A stretch of 64,000 bases of DNA, from contig NZ_JANLCK010000007.1 in NCBI RefSeq assembly GCF_024979315.1, positions 1 to 64,000 on the forward strand, in the 5' to 3' direction. Position 1 is the stretch's first letter, and the number at the start of each line of letters is the position of its first letter. Both the position numbers and the translations under genes were made by a program. The stretch comes from Herbiconiux oxytropis (GTDB lineage: Bacteria > Actinomycetota > Actinomycetes > Actinomycetales > Microbacteriaceae). Shown in pieces: positions 3,478 to 9,792 of this stretch. The notes beneath the pieces were generated by a model. That model made no database searches. It was not told the origin of the DNA and was given only the letters and a program-made list of their open reading frames with translations.

Positions 3478-5649
3478 ATGGTGCGGGAGCGGACGACGCA
3501 GCGGGCGGGAGCCCAGGGGACGACGACGGCGCAGGGGGCGCAAGTCTCGCCGGGCTCTCGACGGCGCGGCCTCGGCATCCAGTCGAAGCTCCTCATCATG
3601 CTGCTCTCGGTGAGCATCGGATCGACGCTCGTGGTGGGGTGGGTCGGCTACACGAACGGCCGCGACAGCCTGCGCGACGCGGCGTTCGACCAGCTCACCA
3701 ACGTGCGCGAGGCCAAGGCCGACGCCGTCCAGGCGCTGTTCTCGAACATCGAGGCGGGACTGCGCCTCGACTCGAGCGGCGCCACGGGCAACCAGGCCGC
3801 CGTGGAGTTCGCGAGCGCGTTCGCCGAGCTCAACGCCCAGCCGGTCGACCCGGCCCGGGAAGCCGTGGTCGACGCCTACTACGACACCGAGTTCATCCCG
3901 GCCCTCGAAGAGCGCACGGGCGACACCTCCGACCCGGCGGTCTTCCTGCCCACCTCGAGCGCGGAGATCACGCTGCAGGCCGAGTACACCGTGCCGCCGG
4001 CCAGTTTCGACGACGCTGCGCTCGTCGACGACGCCGGGGACGGCAGCGCGTGGTCGGCGGTCAACGCCCGCTACAACTCCTACTTCCGCGAGATGGTCAC
4101 GAGCTACCAGTACGAGGATGCCCTCATCCTCGACACCGAAGGCAACGTCGTCTACTCCGTCTACAAGGGCGTCGACCTCGGCACCAATGTGCTGACCGGC
4201 CCCTACAAGGGCACGATCCTCGCCGAGGCCTACGACGACGCCCTGAACTCGAACGTGGTCGACTACACCGAGATCACCGACTTCGAGCGCTACCAGCCCT
4301 CGCTCGGGGTGCCCACCGCCTGGGGCGTCTCGCCCATCGGTGCGGACGGCGTGGTGAACGGCGTGCTCGCCGTGCAACTGCCGATCACGGCCATCAACGA
4401 CGTCATGACCAGCGGGGAGGACTGGGCTGCCTACGGGCTCGGCGAGACGGGGGAGTCCTATCTCGTGGGCCCCGACCGCACGATGCGCTCGGTGTCGCGC
4501 CTGCTCATCGACGACCCGGAGCAGTTCCGGGAGCTCACGATCGAGGGCGGTTCGTCGCCGGCGACGGCGCAACGGATGGTCGACGTGGGTGGCACGGTCG
4601 AACTCCAGCGCGTCGACACCCTCCCCGTCGACCTCGCCCTCACGGGCAAGAAGGGCACGACGGTCGCCAGGGACTACCTCGGCCGGGAGACCCTCGCCGC
4701 CTACACCCCGGTCGACATCGCGGGCGTGCAGTGGGTGCTGGTCTCGAGCATCACCTCGGCCGAGGCGTTCGCGCCCGTCGACGAGTTCACCCGCAACATC
4801 GCCCTGGCCATGCTCGCCATCATCGTCGCCGTCTCGCTGCTGTCGCTCCTGCTCGCGCAGGTCTTCGCGCGCCCGGTCAGAACCCTCGTGGGCGCGGTGC
4901 GGCGGGTGGCGGGCGGCGATCTCGGGGTGGAGGTCACCTCCCGCACGCGCGACGAGTTCGGTGACCTGTCGGTGGCATTCAACGACATGAGCCGGAGCCT
5001 GCAGGTCAAGCAGCAGCTCATCGACGAGCAGCGCGCCGAGACCGACCGCCTGCTGCTCAGCGTGATGCCCGAGAAGGTGGCCCGCCGATACCGCGAGGGC
5101 GAGGAGACGATCGCCGAGAACCACCAGGACGTGACCGTGGTCTACGCCGACCTCGCCGGCTTCGACGATTTCGCCGCGGGCCTCGGCACCGACCGCGAGC
5201 TGTCGCTGCTCAACGACCTCATGCGGCAGTTCGACGACGCCGCGGCGGCGGCCGGGGTGGAGAAGGTGCGCACCCTCCGCGCCGGATACCTCGCGAGCTG
5301 CGGTCTCATCGTGCCGCGCGTCGACAGTGCGCGCCGCACCGTCGGCTTCGCCCTGCAGCTCGCCGAGATCGTGGCGCGCTTCAACGCCCAGCACGACGCC
5401 GGCATCGCCATCCGGGTGGGCATCGACAGCGGAACGGTGACGAGCGGTCTCGTGGGCCAGGCGAGCATCGCCTACGACATGTGGGGTGACGCGGTCAACG
5501 TGGCGAACCGGGTGCAGGCGCTCTCCGGCCGGCCCGGGATCTTCCTCACGCAACGGGTGCGCGACAAGCTGCCCGACACGGCGGGCCTCACCCAGGTCGG
5601 CGAGATCGAGATCGCGGGTGCGACCCAGTCGGTGTGGCAGGTCTCCTGA
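3478..5649 (+). CDS. Membrane receptor with extracellular sensor, HAMP and class III nucleotide cyclase domain (probably impaired catalysis)
   Basis: Layout of the 723 residues: TM1 about 36-58, a large extracellular Cache-like sensor, TM2 about 441-464, HAMP about 465-517 and a class III cyclase homology domain 548-720. In the catalytic domain the first metal Asp is present (Asp558 in YADLAGF). The second is Ala602, and the purine-specifying Lys four residues before it is Arg598 (EKVRTLRAGY). Asp667 in YDMWGD, Asn674 and Arg678 are retained. An intact homodimeric enzyme needs both metal Asps, so this may be a pseudo-cyclase or a nucleotide receptor. Its stop overlaps the start of an MscS channel with a cyclic-nucleotide-binding-like domain, implying coupled function. 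The start is ATG 3478. Confidence 0.85.
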   Translation: MVRERTTQRAGAQGTTTAQGAQVSPGSRRRGLGIQSKLLIMLLSVSIGSTLVVGWVGYTNGRDSLRDAAFDQLTNVREAKADAVQALFSNIEAGLRLDSSGATGNQAAVEFASAFAELNAQPVDPAREAVVDAYYDTEFIPALEERTGDTSDPAVFLPTSSAEITLQAEYTVPPASFDDAALVDDAGDGSAWSAVNARYNSYFREMVTSYQYEDALILDTEGNVVYSVYKGVDLGTNVLTGPYKGTILAEAYDDALNSNVVDYTEITDFERYQPSLGVPTAWGVSPIGADGVVNGVLAVQLPITAINDVMTSGEDWAAYGLGETGESYLVGPDRTMRSVSRLLIDDPEQFRELTIEGGSSPATAQRMVDVGGTVELQRVDTLPVDLALTGKKGTTVARDYLGRETLAAYTPVDIAGVQWVLVSSITSAEAFAPVDEFTRNIALAMLAIIVAVSLLSLLLAQVFARPVRTLVGAVRRVAGGDLGVEVTSRTRDEFGDLSVAFNDMSRSLQVKQQLIDEQRAETDRLLLSVMPEKVARRYREGEETIAENHQDVTVVYADLAGFDDFAAGLGTDRELSLLNDLMRQFDDAAAAAGVEKVRTLRAGYLASCGLIVPRVDSARRTVGFALQLAEIVARFNAQHDAGIAIRVGIDSGTVTSGLVGQASIAYDMWGDAVNVANRVQALSGRPGIFLTQRVRDKLPDTAGLTQVGEIEIAGATQSVWQVS

Positions 5650-7094
5650 TGACCGCGATCTGGACCGAACCGTGGTTCCCCTGGGCCGTCGGGCTCGCGA
5701 TCGGCCTGCCGGTCCTGCTCGTGGTGCTCACCGAGATCCTCGGCCACCTCGTGCGGCGCGGCAGCCCCGCTGCGAAGCCGCTGCGGCTGCTGCGCAACCT
5801 CGTGGTGCCGGTGTTCGCGCTGTTCGTCCTGATGACCCTCGCCTCCGACCAGCAGTTCGACCTCACCTGGGTGCGGGTCGTCGGCACGGTGCTCGGCTTC
5901 CTGCTCATCCTGCTCGTGCTCTCGGCGTTCAACGTGGCGCTGTTCTCGAACGCCACGGAGGGCAGCTGGCAGAAGCGGCTGCCCTCGATCTTCATCGACC
6001 TGGCGCGGCTCGTGCTCATCCTGGTGGGGCTCGCCATCCTGTTCTCCTGGGTCTGGGGAGCCGACGTCGGGGGTCTGTTCGCCGCGCTCGGCGTGACCTC
6101 GATCGTGATCGGTCTCGCCCTGCAGAACGCGGTGGGCTCGGTCATCTCGGGGCTCCTGCTGCTGTTCGAGCAGCCGTTCAAGCTCGGTGACTTCCTCGAC
6201 ACCCCGGCGGGCCGGGGGCGGGTGGTGGAGGTCAACTGGCGCGCCGTGCACATCGACACCGGCAACGGCATCCAGATCGTGCCCAACTCCTCGCTCGCGG
6301 GCGCCTCGTTCACGAACCTCAGCCAGCCCGCGGGTGCGTACGTGGCCACGGCCACGGTGAAGTTCTCCACCGACGACGCGCCGCACGAGGTCTCGGCCAT
6401 GCTCGTGCAGGTGGCACGGGCGCTGCCCATGCTCGACCCGGTCGACAAGCCGGCCGTCGCCTACCGCGGCAACGGAGCCTTCGACGTCAGCCTGCCCGTC
6501 ACGTCTCCGGCGCGCGAGGAGGAGGCGGTCTCGCTGTTCCTCGGCTGGCTCTGGTACGCCGCCAGGCGGCACGACCTGGCCCTCGACGGCGACGCCACCG
6601 ACCCCGTCAACACCCCCGAGTCGGTGCGAGCGGCTCTCACCTCGGTGGGGCCGCTGTTCGGCCTCGGCGGCGGCGATCTCGATGAGATCGCCGGACTCTG
6701 CCGGGTGGAGCAGTGGGGAGCGGGCGAGACCGTGCAGGAGCTCGGCCGGGTGCCCGACAGCCTGCGGATCGTGCTCGAGGGCGCCCTGCAGCTCACGGTG
6801 CCGTTCGAGAACGGGCGTCTCCAGTTCAGTGAACTGGGGAGCGGGGAGTCGGTGGGGCTCACGGCCCTCACCCGTCAGCCCACCACCTACTTCGCCACCG
6901 CCACCCGCCCCACCCTGGTGCTGCGGGTGCCGCGCGACGCGGTGGATGCCGCCGTGCGGCAGAACCCTGCTCTGGCCAGACGCGTGGGCGAGCAGCTCGA
7001 CAACCGCCGCGTGCTCGCGCTCGCGGCGATCGCCCGCGCGCGGGACTCCTCCGGTGTCATCGCGATCGGCGACGAGGCGGTCGGCCTGAGCTAG
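5649..7094 (+). CDS. MscS-family channel with C-terminal cyclic-nucleotide-binding-like domain
   Basis: This 481-residue protein has several N-terminal transmembrane helices and an MscS pore/beta-domain core (ALQNAVGSVISGLLLLFEQP, then VVEVNWRAVHIDTGNG). A cNMP-binding fold occupies about 335-450. It belongs to the MscS branch whose members can be gated by cyclic nucleotides. In the phosphate-binding cassette Glu400 is present, but the Arg that normally follows the Pro and holds the cyclic phosphate is Thr412 (RQPTTYFATA). ATG 5649 overlaps the stop of the cyclase-like gene by one base, so the two are translationally coupled. Ligand specificity has probably changed or been lost. Its TAG stop is also the first half of the next -10 box. 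Confidence 0.85.
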   Translation: MTAIWTEPWFPWAVGLAIGLPVLLVVLTEILGHLVRRGSPAAKPLRLLRNLVVPVFALFVLMTLASDQQFDLTWVRVVGTVLGFLLILLVLSAFNVALFSNATEGSWQKRLPSIFIDLARLVLILVGLAILFSWVWGADVGGLFAALGVTSIVIGLALQNAVGSVISGLLLLFEQPFKLGDFLDTPAGRGRVVEVNWRAVHIDTGNGIQIVPNSSLAGASFTNLSQPAGAYVATATVKFSTDDAPHEVSAMLVQVARALPMLDPVDKPAVAYRGNGAFDVSLPVTSPAREEEAVSLFLGWLWYAARRHDLALDGDATDPVNTPESVRAALTSVGPLFGLGGGDLDEIAGLCRVEQWGAGETVQELGRVPDSLRIVLEGALQLTVPFENGRLQFSELGSGESVGLTALTRQPTTYFATATRPTLVLRVPRDAVDAAVRQNPALARRVGEQLDNRRVLALAAIARARDSSGVIAIGDEAVGLS

Positions 7095-7246: not shown

Positions 7247-8614
7247 ATGAAGTACGCCAACAGCGTCATCGAACTCGTCGGCAACACCCCGCTCGTCAAG
7301 CTCAACAGCGTCACCGACGGCATCAAGGCCACCGTGCTCGCCAAGATCGAGTACCTCAACCCGGGTGGGTCGTCGAAGGACCGCATCGCGACCAACATCA
7401 TCGACGCCGCCGAGCGCGAGGGCCTGCTGAAGCCGGGCGGCACGATCGTGGAGCCCACCTCGGGCAACACCGGCATCGGTCTCGCCCTCGTGGCGCAGCA
7501 GCGCGGCTACCGCTGCGTGTTCGTGCTGCCGGACAAGGTGGGCGAGGACAAGCGCAACGTGCTCACGGCCTACGGCGCCGAGATCGTGGTGACCCCCACG
7601 GCCGTCGCCCCCGAGGATCCGGACTCCTACTACTCGGTCTCCGACCGCCTCGTCACCGAGATCCCGGGTGCCTTCAAGCCCAACCAGTACTCCAACCAGA
7701 ACGGCCCGCTCAGCCACTACCAGTCGACCGGTCCCGAGATCTGGCGCGACACCGAGGGCCTCGTGACCCACTTCGTGGCGGGCGTGGGCACCGGCGGCAC
7801 CATCAGCGGCACCGGCCGCTACCTCAAGGAGGTCTCGGACGGCCGCGTGCAGATCATCGGCGCCGACCCCGAAGGATCGGTGTACTCCGGCGGCACCGGC
7901 CGCCCCTACCTCGTGGAGGGCGTGGGCGAGGACTTCTGGCCCACCGCCTACGACGGCACCGTCGTCGACGAGATCATCGCCTCGAGCGACGCCGAGTCGT
8001 TCGAGATGACCAGGCGGCTCGCCCGCGAGGAGGGCCTCCTGGTGGGCGGCTCGAGCGGTCTCGCCGTCTCGGTGGCGCTGAAGGCCGCGAAGGACCTGCC
8101 GGAGGACGCCGTGGTGGTCGTGCTCCTGCCCGACGGCGGCCGCGGCTACCTCGGCAAGATCTTCAACGAGAAGTGGATGCGCTCCTACGGCTTCGCGAAC
8201 GTCTCCGAGGGCGCCACCGTGCGCGACATGCTGAAGCTCAAGAGCGAGGGCCTGCCCGCCCTCGTGCACGCCCACCCGAGCGACACCGTGCACGACGCCA
8301 TCGGGATCATGACCACCTACGGCGTCTCGCAGCTGCCCGTGCTCTCGGCCGAGCCCCCCGTGGTGATGGGCGAGGTGATCGGCTCGCTCGACGAGAAGAC
8401 CCTGCTCGAGCAGGTGTTCGGCGGCGAGGCCGCGATGACCGACAAGGTCGGCGACTTCGTCGGCGCCTCCCTCCCTCTCATCGGGGCCAACGAGCCCGTC
8501 GCGGCCGCCCGCCAGGCGCTCACCTCCTCCCCGGCCCTGCTGGTGTCGGATGACGGCAAACCCGTCTCCGTGATCACCCGCCAGGACCTCCTCACCTTCC
8601 TCAGCGAAGCCTGA
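7247..8614 (+). CDS. cbs: Cystathionine beta-synthase
   Basis: PLP-dependent enzyme that joins serine and homocysteine to cystathionine, in the cytoplasm. It has 455 residues. The PLP lysine is Lys44 in GGSSKDRI, the substrate loop TSGNTGIG is at 71-78, a GTGGTISGTGRYLK phosphate-binding stretch follows near 178, and a pair of CBS (Bateman) domains occupies about 340-455. That tandem distinguishes it from plain cysteine synthase. ATG 7247 has an AAGGA site six bases upstream. It is followed after 17 nt by a cystathionine gamma-synthase/lyase gene, giving a transsulfuration operon behind the Cys-Cys leader. Confidence 0.93.
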   Translation: MKYANSVIELVGNTPLVKLNSVTDGIKATVLAKIEYLNPGGSSKDRIATNIIDAAEREGLLKPGGTIVEPTSGNTGIGLALVAQQRGYRCVFVLPDKVGEDKRNVLTAYGAEIVVTPTAVAPEDPDSYYSVSDRLVTEIPGAFKPNQYSNQNGPLSHYQSTGPEIWRDTEGLVTHFVAGVGTGGTISGTGRYLKEVSDGRVQIIGADPEGSVYSGGTGRPYLVEGVGEDFWPTAYDGTVVDEIIASSDAESFEMTRRLAREEGLLVGGSSGLAVSVALKAAKDLPEDAVVVVLLPDGGRGYLGKIFNEKWMRSYGFANVSEGATVRDMLKLKSEGLPALVHAHPSDTVHDAIGIMTTYGVSQLPVLSAEPPVVMGEVIGSLDEKTLLEQVFGGEAAMTDKVGDFVGASLPLIGANEPVAAARQALTSSPALLVSDDGKPVSVITRQDLLTFLSEA

Positions 8615-8631
8615 TCCGAAAGGCATCCGAC

Positions 8632-9792
8632 ATGGCCACCAAGAAGACCGAGCAGTTCGAGACCCTCGCCATCCACGCCGGCCAGGAGTTCGACCCCACC
8701 ACCGGAGCGATCATCCCGCCCGTCTACTTCACGAGCACGTTCGTGCAGGACGGCATCGGCGGGTTCCGGAACGGGTACGAGTACACCCGCGGCGGCAACC
8801 CCACCCGCACCGCGCTCGAGACCCAGCTCGCCGCGCTCGAGGGCGCGAAGCACGGCCTGAGCTTCGCCTCCGGCCTCGCCGCGGAAGACGCGCTGCTGCG
8901 CGCCGTGCTGGAGCCCGGCGACCGCATCGTCATGGGCAACGACGTCTACGGCGGCACTCACCGCCTGATCGAGCGCATCCACGGCAAGTGGGGCGTGCAG
9001 AACGAGGTCGTCGAGATGAGCGACCTCTCCGCCGTGTCGAAGGCCGTCGCCGCCGGGGCGACGAAGCTGCTGTGGCTCGAGACCCCCTCGAACCCGCTCA
9101 TGAAGATCAGCGACGTGGCCGAGCTCGCCGAGATCGGCCACGCCGCCGGTGCGCTCGTGGTGGTCGACAACACCTTCGCCTCGCCCTACCTGCAGCAGCC
9201 GCTCGCCCTCGGCGCCGACATCGTGGTGCACTCCACCACCAAGTACCTCGGCGGCCACTCGGACGTGCTCGGCGGTGCCGTGGTGCTGAACGACGACGCG
9301 CTGGAGGAGAAGATCCGCTTTCTGCAGTTCGCCTCAGGCGGGGTGTCGGGCCCGATGGATGCGTGGCTCACCACGCGCGGCATCAAGACCCTCGCGGTGC
9401 GCATGGACCGGCACTCCTCCAACGCCCAGGCGATCGCCGAGCACCTCGTGGGCCACCCCGCCCTCGAGGGCGTGTACTACCCCGGACTCCCCACCCACCC
9501 CGGTCACGAGCTCGCCAAGCGGCAGATGCGCTCCTTCGGTGGCATGATCTCGCTCGCGCTGAAGGGCGGCCCGAAGGCGGCGCGCCGGTTCGCGGAGTCG
9601 ACGCAGCTGTTCCAGCTCGCGGAGTCGCTCGGCGGTGTCGAGTCGCTCATCGGCTACCCGACCGAGATGACGCACGCCTCGGTGAAGGGCACCGTGCTCG
9701 AGGTCCCCGAGAACGTCATCCGCCTCTCGGTGGGCATCGAGTCGGTCGACGACCTGATCGCCGACCTCGACCGCGCGCTGCCGCGCAAGTAG
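8632..9792 (+). CDS. metB: Cystathionine gamma-synthase/gamma-lyase (Cys/Met metabolism PLP enzyme)
   Basis: This 386-residue member of the Cys/Met PLP family has its PLP lysine at Lys204 in STTKYLGGHSD and the YTRGGNPTR and ETPSNP motifs. Close relatives either make cystathionine from O-acyl-homoserine and cysteine or cleave cystathionine to cysteine. Immediate linkage to cystathionine beta-synthase favours use in reverse transsulfuration, but sequence alone does not separate the two activities. ATG 8632 follows GAAAGG. The gene ends 13 nt before the alditol oxidase gene. Confidence 0.88.
   Translation: MATKKTEQFETLAIHAGQEFDPTTGAIIPPVYFTSTFVQDGIGGFRNGYEYTRGGNPTRTALETQLAALEGAKHGLSFASGLAAEDALLRAVLEPGDRIVMGNDVYGGTHRLIERIHGKWGVQNEVVEMSDLSAVSKAVAAGATKLLWLETPSNPLMKISDVAELAEIGHAAGALVVVDNTFASPYLQQPLALGADIVVHSTTKYLGGHSDVLGGAVVLNDDALEEKIRFLQFASGGVSGPMDAWLTTRGIKTLAVRMDRHSSNAQAIAEHLVGHPALEGVYYPGLPTHPGHELAKRQMRSFGGMISLALKGGPKAARRFAESTQLFQLAESLGGVESLIGYPTEMTHASVKGTVLEVPENVIRLSVGIESVDDLIADLDRALPRK

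What the first reader, a model, noticed from the sequence alone, without database searches (positions are those of the whole stretch)
3478..7094. Coupled cyclase-like receptor and cNMP-type MscS channel, both with altered ligand residues
The genes overlap by one base. The cyclase domain lacks the second metal Asp (Ala602) and the purine Lys (Arg598). The channel's binding domain has Thr412 where the phosphate-binding Arg should be. Loss of matching residues in both partners suggests they co-evolved to a non-canonical nucleotide, a direct protein contact, or a signal-only receptor gating a mechanosensitive channel.
Basis: partly seen in the sequence, partly recalled or inferred. Interest (0 to 1): 0.75.

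Follow-up and report, generated by a model that had tools for sequence, protein, structure and literature searches.

The report
Dead-cyclase receptor paired with tension channel
Two overlapping genes in an actinobacterium encode a membrane receptor whose cyclase domain lacks catalytic residues and a tension-type ion channel whose nucleotide-binding domain lacks its usual binding residues; the pair stays together in its relatives, altered in both partners wherever it was checked, so it probably signals by direct contact instead of through cyclic AMP.

Summary
P0001 (3478-5649) is a dCache-like/HAMP receptor with a class III cyclase domain; P0002 (5649-7094) is an MscS channel with a cNMP-binding-type domain; they overlap by one base (TGATG). 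In 114 distinct homologous pairs no cyclase domain has the canonical catalytic set: the second metal Asp is Asp in 2, the purine Lys is Lys in 0. No channel has the cassette Glu, or Arg/Lys at the Thr412 column. High-scoring ordinary domains from carrier genomes keep these residues. Channel and cyclase domain occur, adjacent, in the same 44 of 299 family genomes. In 46 of 50 family carriers this is the only class III cyclase domain. Four loci of another class carry a receptor-channel-receptor arrangement, degenerate differently. All domains are under purifying selection. Best reading: a non-catalytic receptor controlling an MscS-type channel by contact, not through a cyclic nucleotide. Shown: co-occurrence and loss of canonical residues. 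Inferred: contact and gating. A602 and T412 themselves vary, and residue-level co-evolution was not established. Mycobacterial members are probably Rv2435c/Rv2434c, annotated but, in the papers seen, not characterised as a pair.

The parts
3478..5649 (+). receptor gene (723 aa): TM helix, extracytoplasmic dCache-like domain, TM helix, HAMP, helical linker, class III cyclase-like domain (TM helices read from sequence and model, no TM predictor run)
   Evidence: AlphaFold model mean pLDDT 83.9, pTM 0.57
4849..5004 (+). HAMP domain, residues 458-509
   Evidence: Pfam PF00672, 48.8 bits
5113..5628 (+). cyclase-like domain, residues 546-717, canonical catalytic set incomplete
   Evidence: Pfam PF00211, 116 bits; fold match to the Rv1625c catalytic domain (7yz9), TMt 0.82
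5149..5151 (+). codon of Asp558, first metal Asp (kept here; D 59, E 53, N 1, gap 1 of 114)
5269..5271 (+). codon of Arg598 at the purine-Lys position (R 111, H 3, K 0 of 114)
5281..5283 (+). codon of Ala602 at the second metal Asp position (D in 2 of 114)
   Evidence: control 21 of 21 Asp
5476..5478 (+). codon of Asp667, adenine-specifying Asp position (function label recalled), kept in 114 of 114
5649..7094 (+). channel gene (481 aa): MscS-type pore and cytoplasmic domain plus C-terminal cNMP-binding-type domain; overlaps the receptor stop codon by one base
   Evidence: AlphaFold model mean pLDDT 85.7, pTM 0.61, MscS-family fold matches
6129..6323 (+). MscS beta domain, residues 161-225
   Evidence: Pfam PF00924, 61.7 bits; dN/dS of residues 136-232 is 0.01-0.09
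6711..6965 (+). cNMP-binding-type domain, residues 355-439
   Evidence: Pfam PF00027, 42-46 bits
6855..6896 (+). remodelled binding cassette, residues 403-416 (G-L-T-A-L-T-R-Q...); cassette Glu and Arg absent, Arg409 in 111 of 114
6882..6884 (+). codon of Thr412 at the phosphate-binding Arg column (R or K in 0 of 114)

Best explanation
The two genes encode a receptor-channel pair that has outlived its second messenger. An extracytoplasmic dCache-like domain senses an unknown stimulus; the signal crosses the membrane through the TM helices and HAMP to a cyclase-fold dimer that makes no cyclic nucleotide; that dimer acts by direct contact on the cNMP-binding-type domain under the MscS pore, shifting the tension at which the channel opens. 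Shown: strict adjacency and co-occurrence; incomplete catalytic set in all 114 pairs; loss of the cassette Glu and Arg in the channel; purifying selection on both proteins; no other class III cyclase domain in this genome. Inferred: dimer, absence of turnover, physical contact, direction and effect of gating.
For: The same 44 of 299 family genomes carry both genes, matches 2-62 bases apart with the receptor upstream; within the genus the same 9 of 16; 79 of 80 named loci have the receptor directly upstream (one of them, L165, in a single frame with the channel), and the 80th contig starts at the channel. 33 of 55 junctions have a candidate channel start overlapping the receptor stop by 1 or 4 bases. 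Canonical catalytic set in 0 of 114; cassette Glu in 0 of 114; Arg/Lys at column 412 in 0 of 114. Controls: 21 of 21 ordinary cyclases keep both metal Asp, 24 of 25 ordinary CNBDs keep the Arg. 46 of 50 Microbacteriaceae carriers have only this class III domain; the window's genome has no CRP-type protein above cut-off, only this channel and a CNBD fused to a pyridine-nucleotide oxidoreductase domain. dN/dS 0.21-0.27 for the cyclase-like domain, 0.10-0.19 for HAMP plus linker, four comparisons. New conserved residues stand in both proteins: R598 (111/114) and R409 (111/114); D667 and W669 are kept from ordinary class IIIa cyclases (114/114 each). Four loci of another class have the channel with receptor paralogues, incomplete in a different way; all fall in one clade against 21 ordinary cyclases (support 0.996).
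Against: No contact was shown: inter-protein mutual information did not beat shuffles within 26 clusters (z 0.7-1.0). Asp667 and a basic residue at 598 are kept, as if a purine might still bind. 22 of 114 pairs have an acidic residue at both metal positions, nine of these also with Asn and Arg, so weak residual catalysis in some members is not excluded. 49 of 114 channels have an Arg somewhere in 411-415. A dimeric receptor and a heptameric channel (both recalled for these folds) do not match in symmetry. If Rv2434c is the mycobacterial channel, a published 213-bp deletion inactivates it in modern Beijing-lineage strains (PMC8386458, passage), so the channel is dispensable there. The pair is absent in 7 of 16 genomes of the genus.
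Confidence: 0.55

Rival explanations
1. Allosteric nucleotide sensing: the cyclase-like domain binds ATP/ADP or another purine without turning it over, and/or the channel domain binds a non-cyclic ligand; occupancy sets receptor-channel coupling.
For: D667 (114/114) and R598 (111/114) occupy the two purine-recognition positions; the conserved cassette G-x-T-A-L-T-R-[EQ] with R409 in 111/114 looks selected, not decayed. Precedent: trypanosome PKA CNBs bind nucleosides after losing the Arg (PMC10959531, passages).
Against: The trypanosome solution (Glu at the PKA Ala202 position) is absent: column 406 has no Glu in 114. The Y-D-x-W-G stretch is also kept in the 16 Rv1625c-like control cyclases, so its conservation may be structural.
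Confidence: 0.22
2. Ordinary or low-rate cyclase: Glu or another residue replaces the metal Asp and the pair is still a second-messenger system with altered nucleotide.
For: Acidic residues at both metal positions in 22 of 114 pairs, nine of them also with Asn and Arg.
Against: The window protein has Ala602; 92 of 114 lack an acidic pair; no Lys at 598 in any of 114; no second class III cyclase domain in 46 of 50 family carriers; the receiving domain lost its Glu and Arg as well.
Confidence: 0.1
3. Pycsar-like anti-phage module (class III cyclase plus CNBD membrane effector).
For: Weak PADLOC matches: PycC 24.8 bits, PycTIR 18.4 bits; P0002's CNBD also matches PycTIR 8jsj at E 7e-4; same two-gene logic.
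Against: PycC enzymes keep two catalytic metal Asp (PMC11224242, passages), which this protein does not; the receptor carries a sensor and HAMP. No defence-island test was made.
Confidence: 0.03
4. Relic: the pair is decaying and has no present function.
For: Patchy presence, 9 of 16 in the genus; one MAG whose contig title gives coverage about 5 has a stop in the receptor and a frame change in the channel.
Against: Purifying selection on all domains in four comparisons; the pair persists in 114 distinct forms over many genera.
Confidence: 0.05

Closest known systems
M. tuberculosis Rv2435c (dCache adenylate cyclase annotation) and neighbour Rv2434c
   Same: Rv2435c is described as a double-Cache adenylate cyclase (PMC4822843, passage) and put with Rv1625c in the mammalian-type group (PMC3961136, passage); a named Mycobacterium locus (L170) and 15 genomes of one unnamed genus, probably Mycobacterium, carry this family. 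Most likely the same family; adjacency and orthology of the Rv genes are recalled, not tested.
   Different: Treated in the passages seen as a cyclase or as a membrane protein of unknown or cAMP-related function; none of these passages tests the pair or calls the cyclase inactive.
bCNG channels (MscS pore plus CNBD; Caldwell 2010, Malcolm 2012, seen only as references)
   Same: MscS fold with C-terminal cNMP-binding-type domain
   Different: Cassette Glu and Arg absent in 114 of 114; tied to one receptor gene
Rv1625c/Cya class IIIa adenylyl cyclases
   Same: Among the 21 ordinary cyclases compared, the 16 of this type score highest with the family profile (112-132 bits); fold match. The label Rv1625c-like rests on their sequence and recall.
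   Different: All 16 keep the six catalytic residues at the aligned positions
Pycsar (PycC with PycTM/PycTIR)
   Same: Class III cyclase fold next to a CNBD effector
   Different: PycC is catalytic; here the catalytic set is incomplete and a sensor is attached
Trypanosomatid PKA regulatory subunit (nucleoside-responsive CNB)
   Same: CNB domain that lost the phosphate Arg
   Different: The Glu that creates nucleoside binding there (PMC10959531, passages) is not present here

Membership tests
active class III nucleotide cyclase | cyclase fold | tested here: met
   PF00211 116 bits; TMt 0.82 to the Rv1625c catalytic domain 7yz9
active class III nucleotide cyclase | two metal-binding Asp | tested here: not met
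   D558 present, A602; both Asp in 1 of 114 pairs, L054, which lacks Lys598 and Arg678
active class III nucleotide cyclase | purine Lys | tested here: not met
   R598 here; Lys in 0 of 114
active class III nucleotide cyclase | transition-state Asn and Arg | tested here: met
   N674 and R678 present in this protein; over 114 pairs Asn 62, Arg 84
active class III nucleotide cyclase | nucleotide turnover | not testable with these tools
   needs an enzyme assay
MscS channel superfamily | MscS pore helix and beta domain | tested here: met
   PF00924 61.7 bits; Foldseek E 5e-11 to MscK, 6e-11 to MscS
bCNG channels | MscS pore fused to a CNBD | tested here: met
bCNG channels | CNBD with cyclic-nucleotide-binding Glu and Arg | tested here: not met
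   Glu 0, Arg/Lys at 412 0 of 114; control Arg 24 of 25. Whether described bCNG members keep both was not checked
bCNG channels | gating by cyclic nucleotide | not testable with these tools
   needs electrophysiology
Pycsar | catalytic PycC beside a CNBD effector | tested here: not met
   second metal Asp missing; only weak PADLOC scores
nucleoside-responsive CNB (trypanosomatid type) | Glu at the PKA Ala202 position | tested here: not met
   column 406: A 85, T 12, V 10, S 5, G 1, M 1; no E
Rv2435c/Rv2434c pair | orthology by sequence | not tested
   the H37Rv sequences were not fetched; inferred from L170 and cited descriptions

The most novel reading that the evidence does not exclude
A bacterial receptor-gated tension channel: a dedicated transmembrane receptor controls an MscS-type channel by protein contact, using an enzyme fold and a ligand-binding fold that have both given up their chemistry. 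An ancestral cyclase-to-channel second-messenger circuit would have been rewired into a physical relay, which in another class has a second receptor on the other side of the channel gene.
Probability: 0.45. Interest if true: 0.82.

Novelty: new variant of a known kind. Interest (0 to 1): 0.6.

Why it matters
Genes of this family are probably annotated as adenylate cyclases, mycobacterial ones included; if they make no cAMP, counts of cAMP enzymes and inferences from them are wrong. If the pair works by contact, it would be a bacterial ion channel of the mechanosensitive fold under the control of a dedicated receptor, and a clear case in which a second-messenger circuit lost its messenger but kept both proteins. 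It is testable with genes of environmental bacteria.

Tried and rejected
Heterodimer rescue by another cyclase: rejected for this genome and for 46 of 50 family carriers, which hold one class III domain only; not excluded for G176, G227, G249, G295 or for the 15 f22 carriers (8-38 domains). Other cyclase classes were not searched.

Fusion evidence: Leifsonia aquatica L165 reads receptor and channel as one ORF of 1234 aa, but the receptor's C-terminus looks frame-shifted, so I do not count it as a natural fusion.

Residue co-evolution: mutual information on 132 pairs (near-identical duplicates not yet removed, Neff 58). With 8 broad clusters the single top coupling was reached by 2 of 60 shuffles and the means of the top 10 and top 100 by none (z 2.7, 7.8, 14.3); with 26 clusters they were reached by 19, 12 and 9 of 60 (z 0.7-1.0). 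I take this as no evidence beyond shared ancestry.

How the counts were made: loci L035-L090 and L091-L170 are 136; L044 (second piece of the broken G008 channel) and L107 (no receptor on the contig) gave no row, leaving 134. One search removed 18 rows at least 99.5% identical to another, then L039 (broken, G008) and L165, leaving 114 (54 and 60 from the two sets). Intactness of the rest was not tested further; L040's receptor is cut by the contig end (147 aa). The tally is superseded.

How the controls were chosen: the 21 cyclases are 16 of the highest-scoring and 5 other non-family matches's list, out of well over 200 matches in those genomes, so they favour canonical domains. The 25 CNBDs are the 30 loci without four family channels (L237-L239, L250) and without L002; 13 of the 25 are near-identical CRP-like proteins. 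L002 itself keeps the Glu and has an Arg one residue off the usual spacing (read).

NCBIfam gave no model above its cut-off for either protein. L178, L179 (partial channel hits) and L181-L187 were fetched; L178 and L179 were not analysed and L181-L185, L187 were only scanned by pattern. A first pattern attempt at the CNBD control failed; one search replaced it. No cofolding tool was available. Literature: of the 12 papers naming Rv2434c or Rv2435c I saw passages of 10, only abstract and references of PMC2447327, and nothing of PMC4189613 beyond the listing. PMC2447327, the 2004 survey of actinobacterial cyclases, is indexed with Rv2435c 10 times and Rv2434c 3 times, so it may already discuss these genes and their residues.
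Full report
What is there. The window lies in a genome of the genus Herbiconiux (Microbacteriaceae): contigs of its same-genus genomes match named Herbiconiux records; the genome held is 4.13 Mb, 98% complete. Gene 1, 3478-5649, encodes 723 aa: a TM helix, a dCache-like extracytoplasmic domain (Pfam score below its cut-off), a second TM helix, HAMP and a class III cyclase domain. Gene 2, 5649-7094, encodes 481 aa: MscS pore and cytoplasmic domain with a C-terminal cNMP-binding-type domain. They share one base, TGATG. AlphaFold models have mean pLDDT 83.9 and 85.7 with pTM 0.57 and 0.61 and match the class III cyclase and MscS folds.

Is the pair real? In 299 genomes drawn from the family, the channel is found in 44 (E at most 1e-25) and a profile of the cyclase-like domain finds the same 44, 2-62 bases upstream each time, plus one weak match, G272 (E 8e-11). 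In the genus both are in the same 9 of 16. In 296 genomes of the class, 21 have the channel; the 15 outside the family belong to one unnamed genus, probably Mycobacterium, and each channel locus fetched from them has the cyclase domain next to it. Of 80 named loci, 79 have the receptor directly upstream and one contig is cut there. In 33 of 55 junctions a candidate channel start overlaps the receptor stop. In the genus, the 7 genomes without the pair still have the downstream PALP/CBS gene, and 6 of 9 carriers have the channel right before that gene; in G003 the pair lies about 14 kb away, in G010 the two are on different contigs, and in G007 the gene was not found.

Are the residues really altered? 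After removing 18 near-duplicates and 2 broken pairs from 134 rows, 114 distinct pairs remain, the window included. Position 602 (second metal Asp): G 45, E 21, N 20, S 8, A 5, R 5, Q 5, T 3, D 2. Position 598 (purine Lys): R 111, H 3. Position 558 (first metal Asp): D 59, E 53, N 1, gap 1. Asn674: N 62. Arg678: R 84. None has the full canonical set; the one with both metal Asp (L054) lacks Lys598 and Arg678. In the channel, no Glu occurs at 402-406 and no Arg or Lys at 412 in any of 114. Controls: 21 ordinary class III cyclases, 20 from f22 carriers and one from G227, mostly chosen for high score, keep Asp558 and Asp602 in 21 of 21, Arg678 in 21, Lys in 19, Asn in 17, Asp667 in 16; 25 ordinary CNBDs, 13 of them near-identical, have Arg at the Thr412 column in 24.

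Against my reading. 22 of 114 have an acidic residue at both metal positions, nine of them with Asn and Arg too. 49 of 114 have an Arg somewhere in 411-415, 31 at 411, which could stand in for the lost one. Asp667 (114 of 114) and Arg598 (111 of 114) would still suit a purine. Residue-level coupling between the partners exceeds shuffles within 8 broad clusters but not within 26 finer ones. If Rv2434c is the mycobacterial channel, it is reported as non-essential in rich medium (PMC11278869, passage) and as inactivated by a deletion in modern Beijing strains (PMC8386458, passage).

Why contact is the best reading. First, the channel's receiving site and the cyclase's catalytic site are both altered in all 114 pairs, so the classical circuit looks broken at both ends. 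Second, 46 of 50 family carriers have no other class III cyclase domain, and the window's genome has no CRP-type regulator above cut-off; its other CNBD is fused to a pyridine-nucleotide oxidoreductase domain. Third, selection still holds: dN/dS against four relatives is 0.21-0.27 for the cyclase-like domain, 0.10-0.19 for HAMP plus linker, 0.25-0.30 for the sensor, 0.28-0.34 for the CNBD, 0.25-0.46 for the channel's residues 233-340 and 0.01-0.09 for the pore and beta domain. Fourth, new conserved features stand beside the lost ones: G-Y-L-A-S-[CS]-G after position 602 and T-R-[EQ] at 408-410 (residues 605-607 and 609, before duplicates were removed). Fifth, in another class of the phylum four loci (among 396 genomes drawn) carry the channel with a receptor paralogue A upstream and B downstream; in L174 and L176 all three are read, L175 was placed by homology, and L177 begins inside the channel gene so that only B is seen. 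There A lacks the first metal Asp, Asn and Arg in 3 of 3 but keeps Lys in 3 of 3 and the second Asp in 2 of 3; B is more degenerate; the channel lacks the cassette Glu in 4 of 4, with an Arg near the usual place in 2 of 4 (read). A tree of 67 domains (a third of the 114 plus the window, 21 controls, 7 from these loci) puts all family domains in one clade against the controls (support 0.996). Loss of different residues in different lineages points to loss of catalysis, not to a re-tuned product.

Mechanism, with marks. Stimulus on the dCache-like domain (inferred from architecture); HAMP relay (inferred); a cyclase-fold dimer without catalysis (incomplete catalytic set shown, dimer and lack of turnover inferred); contact with the channel's terminal domain (inferred); shift of MscS gating (inferred).

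What is known. bCNG channels are MscS proteins with a CNBD (references seen). Rv2435c is described as a dCache adenylate cyclase (PMC4822843, passage), of mammalian type (PMC3961136, passages); there another M. tuberculosis cyclase, Rv1359, is noted as unlikely to work as a homodimer. One paper suggests a cAMP-pathway role for Rv2434c (PMC11205783, passage). I found no paper that tests the pair or calls this cyclase inactive in eight searches, of which I saw capped listings and, for the 12 papers naming either gene, passages of 10. Most subscription papers are not held, and the 2004 survey PMC2447327 could be seen only as abstract and reference list. Novelty is therefore stated for the library searched.

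Noticed in passing
L174, L175, L176 (and L177, cut at the channel): In another class of the phylum the channel is flanked by two receptor paralogues, A upstream and B downstream; B's cyclase-like domain is more degenerate.
   Followed up: partly
L091 / G008:C75: One Herbiconiux MAG (coverage about 5 in the contig title) has a stop in the receptor gene and a frame change in the channel gene; joint decay or assembly errors.
   Followed up: no
window 7247-9792; neighbours in 25 representative loci: A PALP/CBS-domain gene (cysteine-synthase type) and a Cys/Met-metabolism PLP gene follow the channel; relatives of both lie nearby in 10 of 25 representatives.
   Followed up: partly
L092:1839-3743, L096:1807-3720, L117:1691-3640: ABC exporters (ABC_membrane plus ABC_tran) lie upstream of the receptor in these three loci; a cluster of similar ORFs covers 14 of 25 representatives, in some of them on the other side. 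The window has an FAD-linked oxidase gene there.
   Followed up: partly
G227:C12:44319-47015 (L181, L203, L236): One Agreia-group genome has a second, ordinary cyclase domain with metal Asp kept, about 2 kb from a CNBD protein with Arg at the usual column.
   Followed up: no
L002 (G000:C23:505700-505960): The genome's other CNBD is N-terminal to a pyridine-nucleotide-disulphide oxidoreductase domain and keeps G-E-L in its cassette.
   Followed up: partly
L165: Leifsonia aquatica reads receptor and channel in one 1234-aa frame, apparently through a frame change near the receptor's end.
   Followed up: partly
literature on Rv2434c: A small deletion is reported to inactivate Rv2434c in modern Beijing-lineage strains (PMC8386458; a 214-bp deletion in 273 isolates, PMC10581218).
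   Followed up: no
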